Shown here: positions 33,569 through 54,815 of the stretch, piece after piece | Layout: each line of letters starts with the position of its first letter | Numbering within the stretch: position 1 is the first letter of the stretch | Origin: Clostridia bacterium | GTDB taxonomy: Bacteria; Bacillota; Clostridia; Christensenellales; Aristaeellaceae | DNA length: 64,000 nucleotides | Assembly: GCA_017470145.1 (NCBI GenBank) | Contig: JAFUFB010000013.1 | Coordinates: forward strand, 62,001 to 126,000 | Direction: 5' to 3' | Position numbers and translations under genes: made by a program | Notes under the pieces: model-generated | Seen by the model: only the letters and a program-made list of their open reading frames with translations | What the model was told of the DNA's origin: nothing | Database searches by the model: none

Positions 33569-33597
33569 TTGCACTTCCCATCTTATTTTGGTATACT
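33569..33597 (+). promoter_or_regulatory. Promoter of the cobalamin riboswitch transcript
   Basis: Plus-strand -35 TTGCAC (33569-33574), 17-bp spacer, -10 TATACT (33592-33597). The transcript should start near 33604, at the riboswitch. Confidence 0.8.
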
Positions 33598-33602
33598 TTG
33601 AC

Positions 33603-33780
33603 GGCTCTGGGAAGGAAGCAGGTCCAAGGCCTGCGCGAGCCCGTCGCCGTAGGGCGGATCAATCCCTCTGTCTTACTCCCTGCCGCAAGGGAGGAAAACT
33701 GCCATTGGCCTCTTCTTCAGAAACAGGCTGAGAAGGCTGGGCAAAGGCCGCCGAGCCGGAATATTTCCCTGAGCTGGAAG
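33603..33780 (+). ncRNA. Cobalamin (B12) riboswitch
   Basis: The element shows the conserved parts of the cobalamin family in order: a GGGAA segment with paired CAGGTCC...GGCCTG (33610-33632), the CCCGTCGCCGTAGGGCGG core (33640-33657), a GCCATTGG box at 33701-33708, GGGCAAAGGC (33739-33748) and GAGCCGGAATA (33753-33763), which corresponds to the 3' B12-box. A further stem (33784-33791 with 33821-33828) lies before the ribosome site and has no T tract, so control is probably at translation. I judged this by motif, not by covariance search. Confidence 0.82.
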
Positions 33781-33868
33781 AAAGCTTCTCCTGTATGCGC
33801 GAGCGCCGCGGGGGTTCCCGGGAGAAGCCGATGGTAACCTAAAATCAATAAAGGAGATGCAAAGTACA

Positions 33869-34324
33869 ATGAGAAAGTCTAATTTCAAAAAATGGCTTTC
33901 GCTGGTCCTTTGCCTTGCGCTGCTTGCGGCAGCGGCGCTGAGCACTGCGGCCTTTGCGGAAACCGCAACGGAAACCGAGGAAGTCGTTATCCTCATGACC
34001 GGCACCCAGGAAGAACCTGTGGAACTGGGAGAAGGCGAAGTTTCGTTCCTTTTCCAGGTCATCGACACGGAAGGCGCGGAAGCCTGGTTCAAGGTGAACA
34101 CCGACGCGGAGACCGTCGGCGCGGCCCTGCTGGAGAATGAGCTGGTGAACGGTTCCGAAAGCGAGTATGGTCTGTATGTTACCTCCGTCTGCGGCATCGA
34201 GCTGATTTGGTCCGAAGAGAATCCCCACTACTGGGCCTTCTACATCAATGGCGAATATGCCCAGACCGGCGTGGATACCACTCCCATCGAAGCAGATACC
34301 GTGTATCTGTTCAAGGCGGAGTAA
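33869..34324 (+). CDS. Secreted DUF4430 (transcobalamin-like C-terminal domain) protein
   Basis: A 151-residue protein with a Sec signal peptide (MRKSNFKKWLSLVLCLALL, cleavage after AFA near residue 29) and one DUF4430 domain. Recognised features are TVGAALLENELV, YGLYVTSVCGIE and YWAFYINGEYAQTGVDTTPI, as in the beta domain of transcobalamin and intrinsic factor and in bacterial DUF4430 proteins. The riboswitch upstream makes a role in cobalamin binding or uptake likely. There is no lipobox, LPxTG or membrane anchor, so it should be free outside the cell. The ATG at 33857 sits in the GGAG sequence and is not used; 33869 is. Confidence 0.88.
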   Translation: MRKSNFKKWLSLVLCLALLAAAALSTAAFAETATETEEVVILMTGTQEEPVELGEGEVSFLFQVIDTEGAEAWFKVNTDAETVGAALLENELVNGSESEYGLYVTSVCGIELIWSEENPHYWAFYINGEYAQTGVDTTPIEADTVYLFKAE

Positions 34325-53470: not shown

Positions 53471-53848
53471 TTACTTGGTAGCCTTCTTCTTTCCGGCAAT
53501 GGTCTTCTTGGGGCCCTTGCGGGTACGAGCGTTCTGCTTCGTATTCTGTCCGCGGACGGGAAGGCCATGACGATGACGAACGCCACGGTAGCAGCCGATT
53601 TCGATCAGGCGCTTGATATTGAGGGACACCTCGCGGCGAAGATCGCCTTCCACCTTCAGGTGATGCTCAATGTATTCACGCAGCTTGCTGATTTCAGTCT
53701 CGGAGAGATCCTTCACCCGGGTGTCCGGATTGATGCCGACTTCCGCCAGCAGCTTCTGCGACGTGGTCAGACCGATGCCATAAATGTAGGTCAGGCCGAT
53801 CTCCACGCGCTTTTCTCTGGGCAGGTCAACGCCTGCAATGCGTGCCAT
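53471..53848 (-). CDS. rpsM: Ribosomal protein S13
   Basis: A 125-residue head protein of the 30S subunit with [21 protein letters not shown] at its start and [20 protein letters not shown] near its end. It is the first gene of the alpha operon here; infA and rpmJ, often directly before it, are absent. A GGAGG sequence lies 12 bases before its ATG. Confidence 0.98.
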
Positions 53849-54175
53849 GTGTGTCTTACACCTCCATAAATTCTTGACCTGTGGTCAAATGGGGAAACAT
53901 CGCGACCTCTCCCATAAGCCCTGTCCGGAGAGACCGCTGGACTGCACCCCTTCCCAGGGGCTCAATCCGCCGCCCCCAACCCTCGCGGCAACCCACCGCT
54001 CGAAATCGAGGCTCAGCACCTGTCGCCGCCTGGTGAAAGCAGGCGCACGACAACGCCACCCAGCCGCTTATGGAAGGCGCGGCCAGAAAGCGCATCAAAG
54101 AGACGTAGAGACCAGCCTTCGGAACACATACTCTTTGAAGCACATGCAGCCGCCCGAAAGCCGACCGGGCCTAAC
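53849..54175 (-). ncRNA. Long structured leader RNA of the alpha operon, unidentified
   Basis: About 330 bases between the promoter at 54182-54210 and rpsM, GC-rich and without a plausible reading frame. Stems visible on the minus strand include TGTCG-TG-CGCCTG...CAGGCG-G-CGACA (54021-54052), a 9-bp stem with two G-U pairs (53904-53935), a CAAAGAG/CTCTTTG pair around 54098-54140, and a TTGACC/GGTCAA hairpin at 53874-53888 just before the ribosome site. A 10-nt region (54066-54075) pairs with 53910-53919. The G-U pairs work only if the minus strand is the RNA. It does not match RNase P, tmRNA, SRP or a T-box by eye. Confidence 0.6.
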
Positions 54176-54181
54176 CACTGA

Positions 54182-54210
54182 ATCTTATCACAGCCGATGG
54201 AGAAATGCAA
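54182..54210 (-). promoter_or_regulatory. Promoter of the alpha operon
   Basis: Minus-strand -35 TTGCAT (54205-54210), 17-bp spacer, -10 TAAGAT (54182-54187). Transcription should start near 54175. Confidence 0.75.
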
Positions 54211-54323: not shown

Positions 54324-54815
54324 GTGCATGCTTTATATACGGAGCAGGATCTTACCGCTCTTCGTAAGCAGATTAAAAATCGTTGGTTTGGCTTTCTGGC
54401 CATTTTTCTGGTTGCAGTGGTCGTCCTGGCCCTGCTCCTGATTTCCGATAATCATAAGGAGAATCGTCCGGAGCTGATTACCACCCTGGTACTGATTCTG
54501 TCCGGCGGTCTTCTTATCTTTTACTATGATCTTTTGATCCGCCCCCTGCGGGCCTATGAGCGCCATATGGATACCGCCCTGCATGGCCGCTCCCATCAGG
54601 TGACGGTGCTTTTCGACCATTTGAACGAGGAATCTTCCCTGGTGGAGGGCGTTACCTATCGAGATCTGATCTTTCTGGGAGAAGCGGACAAGCATGGGGA
54701 CCGGGAGCGGATGTTCTACTGGGATATGGAGCTGCCCCTGCCTGAATTCAAGAAGGGACAGGAGATCACCCTGACTTATTTCGACCGCTTTATTACCGCT
54801 TATTCTCTCGCCTGA
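54324..54815 (+). CDS. Small two-helix membrane protein of unknown function
   Basis: A 163-residue protein that I do not recognise. It starts at a GTG (54324) eight bases after AAAGGGG. Two transmembrane helices (WFGFLAIFLVAVVVLALLLI; LITTLVLILSGGLLIFYYDL) are followed by a ~95-residue cytoplasmic domain with VTVLFDHLNEESSLVEGV and acidic turns. Its divergence from the ribosomal operon and the dyad between them suggest shared control, but the function is unknown. Confidence 0.75.
   Translation: MHALYTEQDLTALRKQIKNRWFGFLAIFLVAVVVLALLLISDNHKENRPELITTLVLILSGGLLIFYYDLLIRPLRAYERHMDTALHGRSHQVTVLFDHLNEESSLVEGVTYRDLIFLGEADKHGDRERMFYWDMELPLPEFKKGQEITLTYFDRFITAYSLA

What the first reader, a model, noticed from the sequence alone, without database searches (positions are those of the whole stretch)
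53849..54175. Unidentified structured RNA leader before the ribosomal alpha operon
Between a good promoter and rpsM lie ~330 bases with several stable stems. A 10-nt segment (54066-54075) is complementary to 53910-53919, and both sit mostly in hairpin loops, so a kissing interaction or pseudoknot, or a two-state switch, is possible. A 9-bp stem has two G-U pairs and the 10-bp pairing has one G-U pair; these become mismatches on the plus strand, so the strand is supported. A further hairpin (53874-53888) sits just before the ribosome site. S4 or another product of the operon could be the ligand. It resembles no alpha-operon leader that I know.
Basis: partly seen in the sequence, partly recalled or inferred. 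Interest (0 to 1): 0.72.

Follow-up and report, generated by a model that had tools for sequence, protein, structure and literature searches.

The report
New ribosomal-protein operon control RNA
The stretch in front of this bacterium's ribosomal alpha operon is a real, folded control RNA, built around a seven-letter bulge (GCGGCUG) that recurs in front of the same operon in many Clostridia and matched no catalogued RNA family here; it most likely lets a ribosomal protein, probably S4, shut off its own production.

Summary
A plausible promoter is followed by a ~327-nt minus-strand leader that ends at rpsM. Its first ~200 nt fold into a covarying structure kept in 73 of 308 genomes of the host's family. 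In 70 of the 73 the rpsM start follows; G203 ends at its contig, G256 shows it by eye, G042 was not fetched. Double changes affect 28 of 58 pairs in one set and 47 of 53 in other genera.

The core is a hairpin with an unpaired GCGGCUG bulge. That 7-mer is in 22 of 43 long rpsM spacers from a wide set (shuffles: mean 0.57) and in 16 of 28 held-out spacers (mean 0.19). No Rfam 15 family matched. The known rpsM leader of Clostridia, RF03140, is a different RNA.

Most likely it is an autoregulatory ribosomal-protein leader. S4 is favoured: the motif is in 36 of 110 operons with rpsD and 0 of 23 without, though phylogeny confounds this. Repression may hide the Shine-Dalgarno, which the P3 loop (CUUCC) can pair with.

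Ligand and switching are inferred.

The parts
54182..54210 (-). plausible promoter: -35 TTGCAT (54210-54205), 17-nt spacer, -10 TAAGAT (54187-54182) within TGTGATAAG; start expected near 54175
   Evidence: read from sequence; similar elements before the leader in relatives; below the cut-off of the promoter scan; no 5'-end mapping
53849..54175 (-). whole leader (5' UTR) of rpsM-rpsK-rpsD-rpoA-rplQ
54110..54166 (-). P2 domain: outer stem 54166-54154 / 54122-54110, inner stem P2b 54147-54138 / 54133-54124
   Evidence: covariation; in some other genera this domain alone is recognisable
54147..54153 (-). bulge GCGGCUG, putative protein-binding site (its last G may pair G-U in the window's genus)
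54054..54094 (-). P3 hairpin (54094-54079 / 54067-54054) with loop CCUUCCAUAA (54077-54068)
   Evidence: covariation; CUUCC in the loop in 59 of 60 distinct sequences; complementary to the Shine-Dalgarno sequence
54022..54053 (-). P4 hairpin with bulged U and loop CUUUCACC (54039-54032)
53985..53999 (-). P5 hairpin with loop GGGUUG (53994-53989)
   Evidence: absent in L008
54167..54171 (-). 5' strand GGCCC of a proposed pseudoknot with GGGUU of the P5 loop (53994-53990)
   Evidence: 5 pairs possible in 29 of 29 sequences of A1 by a permissive test; on the alignment itself this helix shows no change on both sides, so weak
53859..53897 (-). pyrimidine tract UUUCCCC (53897-53891), hairpin 53888-53874, Shine-Dalgarno GGAGGUG (53865-53859); the tract can pair with the Shine-Dalgarno across the hairpin
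   Evidence: inferred pairing, covariation cannot test a constant Shine-Dalgarno
53471..53848 (-). rpsM (S13)
   Evidence: Pfam PF00416
53020..53421 (-). rpsK (S11)
   Evidence: Pfam PF00411
52402..52998 (-). rpsD (S4), favoured ligand
   Evidence: Pfam PF00163 and PF01479
51404..52402 (-). rpoA
   Evidence: Pfam PF01000, PF01193 and PF03118
50835..51347 (-). rplQ (L17)
   Evidence: Pfam PF01196

Best explanation
This is a ribosomal-protein leader: a cis-acting RNA at the 5' end of the alpha-operon message. A ribosomal protein made from the operon, most likely S4, binds the P2 hairpin at the conserved GCGGCUG bulge when it is in excess over its rRNA site. Binding favours a fold in which the Shine-Dalgarno sequence is hidden: the P3 loop (CUUCC) pairs with GGAGG, helped by a pyrimidine tract (UUUCC) that can also pair with it. 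Translation of rpsM and the coupled genes then falls. The window's family has, it seems, enlarged an older, short clostridial hairpin into a ~200-nt multi-domain RNA.

Shown by sequence comparison: the conserved structure, its place before rpsM, the recurrence of the core across Clostridia, and the conservation of a P3 loop complementary to the Shine-Dalgarno. Inferred: which protein binds, that binding represses, which fold is the off state, and the direction of evolution.
For: Covariation: 58 pairs, 28 with changes on both sides against 17.5 in shuffles, 0 of 500 shuffles as high on any of five measures, and slid partners far lower (29 sequences, L008 left out because it lacks the P5 loop). 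In 32 sequences, 31 of them new and from other genera, 47 of 53 pairs changed on both sides and 306 cells against 94.9 (alignment fitted to the model; L144, L160, L165 and L166 left out by me). For P2 alone, 97% of cells are paired in 47 sequences and 85 cells have double changes against 26.4, but the count of pairs with double changes is not above shuffles (6 against 5.2; 47 of the 61 segments, which were picked by the motif).

Location: rpsM start after the core in 37 of 37 close loci. Of 35 distant strong matches, 33 have rpsM downstream by tblastn, L159 shows its start by eye, and L166 ends at its contig.

Core: GCGGCTG in 22 of 43 spacers and in 16 of 28 held-out spacers. Of these 38, 28 form the bulged hairpin against a mean of 7.65 (maximum 13) with shuffled flanks.

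Ligand: motif in 36 of 110 operons with rpsD and 0 of 23 without, Fisher p = 4.9e-4; spacers of 60 nt or more in 65 of 110 against 1 of 23.

Mechanism: CUUCC, complementary to GGAGG, in the P3 loop of 59 of 60 distinct sequences.
Against: No binding or expression data exist here. The rpsD association is confounded by phylogeny: of the 23 operons without rpsD, 19 bear Bacilli genus names, one is Synergistales and three are unnamed. Among spacers of 60 nt or more only one lacks rpsD, so there is no discrimination within leaders. 29 operons with rpsD and a long spacer lack the exact motif, and 10 of 38 motif-bearing spacers do not form the hairpin by my scan.

The Shine-Dalgarno is constant, so its pairing cannot be tested by covariation. 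In one search the 5-bp pairing in 58 of 58 scored leaders is there by construction (the script looked for CCTTCC and GGAGG; in three, L006, L010 and L168, it took a CCTTCC outside the loop; 7 of 65 were not scored). Only the extension beyond 5 bp is a test there, and it is barely better than permuted partners (6.17 against 6.01, p = 0.039, relatedness ignored). L162 lacks CUUCC in the loop.

Minimal leaders show no P3, so Shine-Dalgarno hiding by P3 cannot be a mechanism shared by all. S13 or S11 could be the ligand instead.
Confidence: 0.55

Rival explanations
1. Same kind of leader, but the ligand is S13 or S11 (or L17) rather than S4.
For: rpsM is the gene next to the element wherever it could be read. 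The exact GCGGCUG occurs once in the 16S rRNA of a close relative, in the 3' strand of helix 45 beside the anti-Shine-Dalgarno (helix name recalled); the platform protein S11 lies near there (recalled).
Against: The motif was not seen in 23 operons that keep rpsM and rpsK but lack rpsD. A given 7-mer hits a 16S rRNA by chance in about 9% of cases (my arithmetic), and there it is helical, not a bulge. S4 is the confirmed target of leaders in Gammaproteobacteria and Firmicutes (PMC7247131, section 10 read).
Confidence: 0.25
2. The leader is a riboswitch or other sensor of a small molecule or of temperature, not of a ribosomal protein.
For: The RNA is large, with several conserved single-stranded stretches and a possible pseudoknot, which is unusual for a simple protein site.
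Against: It stands before rpsM in every readable case, although the loci beyond the family were drawn by rpsM and so do not test this. A metabolite sensor would normally recur before other genes, but family-wide genome scans gave one strong match per genome. Of three order-level matches outside the family none has rpsM nearby; two share a coding frame that looks like NuoF.
Confidence: 0.07
3. An independent small RNA gene that merely sits upstream of rpsM.
For: It begins at what looks like its own promoter and has a compact ~200-nt conserved core followed by variable sequence.
Against: The terminator scan found none on this strand of the region; the spacing to rpsM is short (54-184 nt); in several genera the minimal hairpin lies, by eye, inside the rpmJ-rpsM spacer.
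Confidence: 0.06
4. Two-state kissing switch: the P3 loop pairs either with 53919-53909 (open) or with the Shine-Dalgarno (closed).
For: Both pairings exist in the window: 11 bp and 10 bp with the same strand.
Against: Complements of at least 10 bp number 6 against 5.7 in shuffles; the upstream partner exists only in the long-leader species of the genus.
Confidence: 0.15

Closest known systems
RF03140 S4-Clostridia ribosomal protein leader (Eckert and Weinberg 2020, PMC7247131)
   Same: Stands before rpsM-rpsK-rpsD-rpoA-rplQ in Clostridia; proposed S4 leader.
   Different: 55 positions, two small tandem hairpins, starts with GAAAGG, no GCGGCUG bulge. In 291 class genomes three matches pass the cut-off and one more falls below it before rpsM; none of these four has GCGGCTG within 260 nt upstream of rpsM. 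The window's leader does not match it at E <= 10.
RF00140 Alpha_RBS (E. coli alpha-operon leader, S4 pseudoknot)
   Same: Same operon, same likely ligand, hairpin just before the ribosome site.
   Different: 16.3 bits against a cut-off of 38, and the match rests mainly on the rpsM coding start and a 7-bp hairpin. The ~200-nt core lies outside it.
Firmicutes and Fusobacteriales S4 leaders (conserved GUAA)
   Same: Proposed or shown S4 leaders.
   Different: They are described with a GUAA that imitates rRNA (PMC7247131 section 10). Their alignments were not seen; no Rfam family matched here.

Membership tests
ribosomal-protein leader (functional kind) | conserved structured RNA supported by covariation | tested here: met
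ribosomal-protein leader (functional kind) | consistently upstream of ribosomal-protein genes | tested here: met
   (searches by the RNA or within the family); started from rpsM
ribosomal-protein leader (functional kind) | bound by a product of the operon, which lowers expression | not testable with these tools
   only the indirect rpsD association
RF03140 S4-Clostridia | matches the covariance model over its cut-off | tested here: not met
   window: no match at E <= 10; relatives: none at E <= 2 in 17 loci; own genome: none at E <= 1
RF03140 S4-Clostridia | GAAAGG plus two tandem hairpins | tested here: not met
   consensus shown differs from the P2 bulged hairpin
RF00140 Alpha_RBS | matches the covariance model over its cut-off (38 bits) | tested here: not met
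   16.3 bits
RF00140 Alpha_RBS | nested double pseudoknot that entraps the ribosome | not tested
   no structure probing; recalled feature
Firmicutes S4 leader | GUAA element imitating 16S rRNA | tested here: inconclusive
   GGUAAA occurs in some relatives (e.g. L013, L014) but is not conserved; the published alignment was not seen

The most novel reading that the evidence does not exclude
The conserved GCGGCUG bulge works through RNA, not protein. It is the exact complement of CAGCCGC in the highly conserved 530 loop of 16S rRNA (and the same as the 3' strand of helix 45). The leader would thus sense free or unfinished 16S rRNA directly, so that alpha-operon translation follows the supply of assembling 30S subunits, with S4 (which binds next to helix 18) competing for the same ground.
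Probability: 0.06. Interest if true: 0.88.

Novelty: new variant of a known kind. Interest (0 to 1): 0.66.

Why it matters
Eckert and Weinberg state that the previously known Firmicutes S4 leader is absent from Clostridia, and their own S4-Clostridia model passed its cut-off in 3 of 291 class genomes here (strict filters). The GCGGCUG 7-mer may fill much of that gap: it is in 38 of 71 rpsM spacers of 60 nt or more, which is 38 of all 137 rpsM loci examined, including Clostridium, Lachnospiraceae and Alicyclobacillus. It offers a simple, testable binding site (seven bases in a bulge) and a natural series from a ~50-nt hairpin to a ~200-nt multi-domain RNA at one operon. That is useful for studying how regulatory RNAs grow and how lineages solve the same regulatory problem.

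Tried and rejected
Rfam: whole window at gathering (only a cobalamin riboswitch elsewhere); leader at E <= 10 (four weak matches, all under their cut-offs); 17 relatives at E <= 2 (none); 20 wider rpsM loci at gathering (none); 12 at E <= 10 (nine weak matches, all under their cut-offs); 12 at E <= 10 (RF03140 only in loci that had been fetched by it; the rest weak).

Order-wide search with the P2 model (14 of 396 genomes, 11 of them in the family; strict filters): the three matches outside the family (L193-L195) were rejected, as none has rpsM. L193 lies in a long reading frame that looks like NuoF (name recalled) and L194 is nearly the same sequence. L195's frame was not examined.

Weak R1 matches: L179 and L180 were rejected, no rpsM. 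L178 and L181 were kept as probable short forms.

Considered and dropped: RNase P, tmRNA, SRP and 6S RNA (no Rfam match); a transcription terminator before rpsM (none on this strand). Mimicry of 16S helix 45: kept only as a lead, since one exact 7-mer in 16S is expected in about 9% of cases. GAAA just 5' of the hairpin (as in S4-Clostridia): 10 of 39 against 5.8 in shuffles, p = 0.037; no basis for joining the two families.

Against my reading: the z-score of the single-sequence fold is only -1.94; 21 of 43 long spacers lack the exact 7-mer; 8 of 45 same-genus genomes gave no R1 match, of which two were looked at: in G029 the rpsM start lies off the contig, and in G038 no rpsM was found.

Corrected while checking: my first anchor for rpsM in L023 was tens of bases off; one search finds the start after the core. 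The CUUCC count is now taken from the loop columns of the alignments, not.

Full report
WHAT IS THERE. On the minus strand a plausible promoter (TTGCAT, 17 nt, TAAGAT; 54210-54182) is followed by 327 nt and then rpsM (53848-53471) in the order rpsM-rpsK-rpsD-rpoA-rplQ; all five proteins are confirmed by Pfam. The promoter is weak by consensus and not listed by the scan, but similar elements recur at that place in relatives. The reading frame on the other side (54324-54815) diverges and matches no Pfam family. No Rfam 15 family reaches its cut-off in the leader. At E <= 10 four families appeared, all under their cut-offs; the only alpha-operon one, Alpha_RBS, has 16.3 bits against 38 and rests mainly on the rpsM start. 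The single-sequence fold is only moderately better than shuffles (z = -1.94), so the case rests on relatives.

CONSERVATION. A DNA search of 308 genomes of the host's family found matches in 68. Of the 30 loci kept (L002-L031: the window itself, 28 others of its genus and one of another genus) all have an rpsM match, and the rpsM start follows the core in all 30. Aligned from the expected transcript start (A1: 29 sequences; L001 is the window again and L008 lacks the P5 loop, so both were left out), the RNA shows: a long stem P2 with an inner hairpin and a GGGCGGCUGCA...UGUUCC internal loop invariant in this set; P3 with loop CCUUCCA; P4 with loop CUUUCACC; and P5 with loop GGGUUG. Of 58 pairs, 28 change on both sides against a shuffled mean of 17.5. 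None of 500 shuffles reaches any of the five observed measures, and slid partners fall from 89% to at most 46% paired. Relatedness is not controlled by the shuffles, but is by the slides.

WIDER FAMILY. A covariance model (R1) gave matches in 85 of 308 genomes at E <= 0.01. By my count of the listing 73 of these are stronger than 1e-12 and span the model (G123 is cut by its contig end), 37 of them in the window's genus of 45. For 36 of those 37 the locus was read and rpsM follows (G042 was not fetched). I fetched all 36 strong ones outside the genus plus four weak ones. Of 35 of these strong ones examined, 33 have rpsM downstream by tblastn, L159 shows the rpsM start by eye, and L166 ends at its contig; the 36th (L177) is the same locus as L028. 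The distance from the match to the start codon is 54-184 nt. In 32 of these sequences (31 new, plus L028, which was in A1; L144, L160, L165 and L166 left out) 47 of 53 pairs change on both sides; that alignment was fitted to the model and leans towards it.

THE CORE. In one genus (L181) only P2 is recognisable, 57 nt before rpsM. I then searched for rpsM in 30 family genomes chosen because they had given no or weak matches; 25 gave 26 loci. 24 of these include the rpsM start and 23 of the 24 carry GCGGCTG within 420 nt upstream; L208 does not, and in L199 it does not look like the hairpin. In many of these the surrounding helices differ completely (for example CCAAA-GCGGCUG-CCCGC...GCGGG-UU-UUGG) while GCGGCUG stays. 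A structural count on 47 P2 sequences gives 97% paired cells and 85 double-changed cells against 26.4. Those 47 come from 61 segments picked by a pattern holding GGGCGGCTG, so the constancy of the motif there is by construction; the count of pairs with double changes (6 against 5.2) is not above shuffles.

BEYOND THE FAMILY. Among 79 rpsM loci found by protein similarity (mostly Firmicutes; not filtered for the window's own family: L034 is the same contig as family locus L208), 43 have a spacer of at least 60 nt. GCGGCTG is in 22 of them, level with the Shine-Dalgarno 7-mer, against a shuffled mean of 0.57 and maximum 4. As a held-out test I drew rpsM from 60 class and 81 phylum genomes and kept the 58 best-scoring loci other than the window's, none from its order. 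They gave 28 long spacers, of which 16 carry the 7-mer: 13 of 20 from the class and 3 of 8 from the phylum (shuffled mean 0.19, maximum 2). Of the 38 motif-bearing spacers, 28 form helix-bulge-hairpin-helix with both helices of at least 4 bp, against a mean of 7.65 (maximum 13) when the flanks are shuffled; 20 reach 11 bp in all against 1.17 (maximum 4). Named bearers of the 7-mer include Clostridium rhizosphaerae (L105), two Alicyclobacillus (L051, L076) and Christensenella sp. UBA1385 (L038).

IS IT KNOWN? Eckert and Weinberg 2020 (PMC7247131; abstract, sections 5, 9, 10 and passages read; figures and supplements not seen) list an S4 leader in Clostridia before the same operon. The Rfam 14 paper (PMC7779021, passages read) names it RF03140. 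Searched over 291 class genomes with strict filters, RF03140 passes its cut-off in 3, all in one family, plus one below the cut-off in that same family before rpsM; the ten other matches listed are weak and have no rpsM. None of the four has GCGGCTG within 260 nt upstream of rpsM. Its consensus, GAAAGG followed by two tandem hairpins, is not this element. Text searches listed no paper that, by title, abstract or the passages I opened (also PMC11109978), describes a GCGGCUG leader; the library is open-access only and most subscription papers are not in it.

LIGAND. If S4 is the ligand, the motif should need rpsD in the operon. Of 133 operons with enough downstream sequence (5 others were too short), 36 of 110 with rpsD carry the motif and 0 of 23 without rpsD do (Fisher 4.9e-4). 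Long spacers show the same: 65 of 110 against 1 of 23. The test is not corrected for phylogeny: 19 of the 23 bear Bacilli genus names. It supports S4 without proving it.

MECHANISM. The P3 loop holds CUUCC, complementary to the Shine-Dalgarno GGAGG, in 29 of 29 sequences of A1 and 31 of 32 of A4 (59 of 60 distinct; L162 lacks it). Complements of this length are not rarer in shuffles (6 against 5.7), and the upstream partner is confined to long-leader species. The extension of the loop/Shine-Dalgarno pairing beyond five pairs is barely better than with permuted partners (6.17 against 6.01, p = 0.039). A pyrimidine tract before the last hairpin can also cover the Shine-Dalgarno. I therefore favour translational repression by hiding the ribosome site, set by protein binding at the bulge; these steps are inferred. 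In A1 the 5' end (AGCCC or similar) can pair with GGGUU of the P5 loop in 29 of 29 by a permissive test, but without double changes; in some other genera the 5' end appears by eye to pair with the segment after P2 instead.

rRNA RESEMBLANCE. In the 16S rRNA of a close relative GCGGCUG occurs once, in helix 45, and its complement CAGCCGC is in the 530 loop (helix names recalled). A single 7-mer match is expected in roughly one case in eleven, so this is only a lead.

VERDICT. A real, conserved leader RNA of a known functional kind, with a core hairpin that no Rfam 15 family matched in the calls above. In the window's family it exists in a large multi-domain form.

Noticed in passing
window 33572-33786 (+): Cobalamin riboswitch (RF00174, 43 bits) followed by a 155-aa secreted-looking reading frame (33857-34324) and, further on, CobW-like frames on the other strand, one with a His/Asp-rich stretch (names by eye); no family search was run on these proteins.
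   Followed up: no
window 54067-54061 (-): A second GCGGCTG lies in the 3' strand of P3 in the window; by eye many relatives read GCGGCCG there, so it looks like chance.
   Followed up: partly
L033 and L207 upstream of rpsM: A hairpin with loop UGGGUUG, like P5, stands downstream of the GCGGCUG hairpin in leaders that otherwise look unrelated; it may be a second old recognition element.
   Followed up: no
L198, L181 (minimal leaders): The hairpin loop reads AUCACC or UUUCACC, like the P4 loop of the large form and like the 16S 3' end GAUCACCUCC.
   Followed up: no
L036, L041, L042, L047, L048, L053 upstream of rpsM: Long rpsM spacers without GCGGCTG share, by eye, CAUUCCA or UUUUCCAC-like segments; possibly yet another leader type.
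   Followed up: no
39 motif places in wider rpsM loci, 3' of the bulged hairpin: AU-rich ATATA/ATAGA/ATACA/ATACG segments follow the hairpin more often than in shuffles (26 of 39 against a mean of 12.2, maximum 20).
   Followed up: partly
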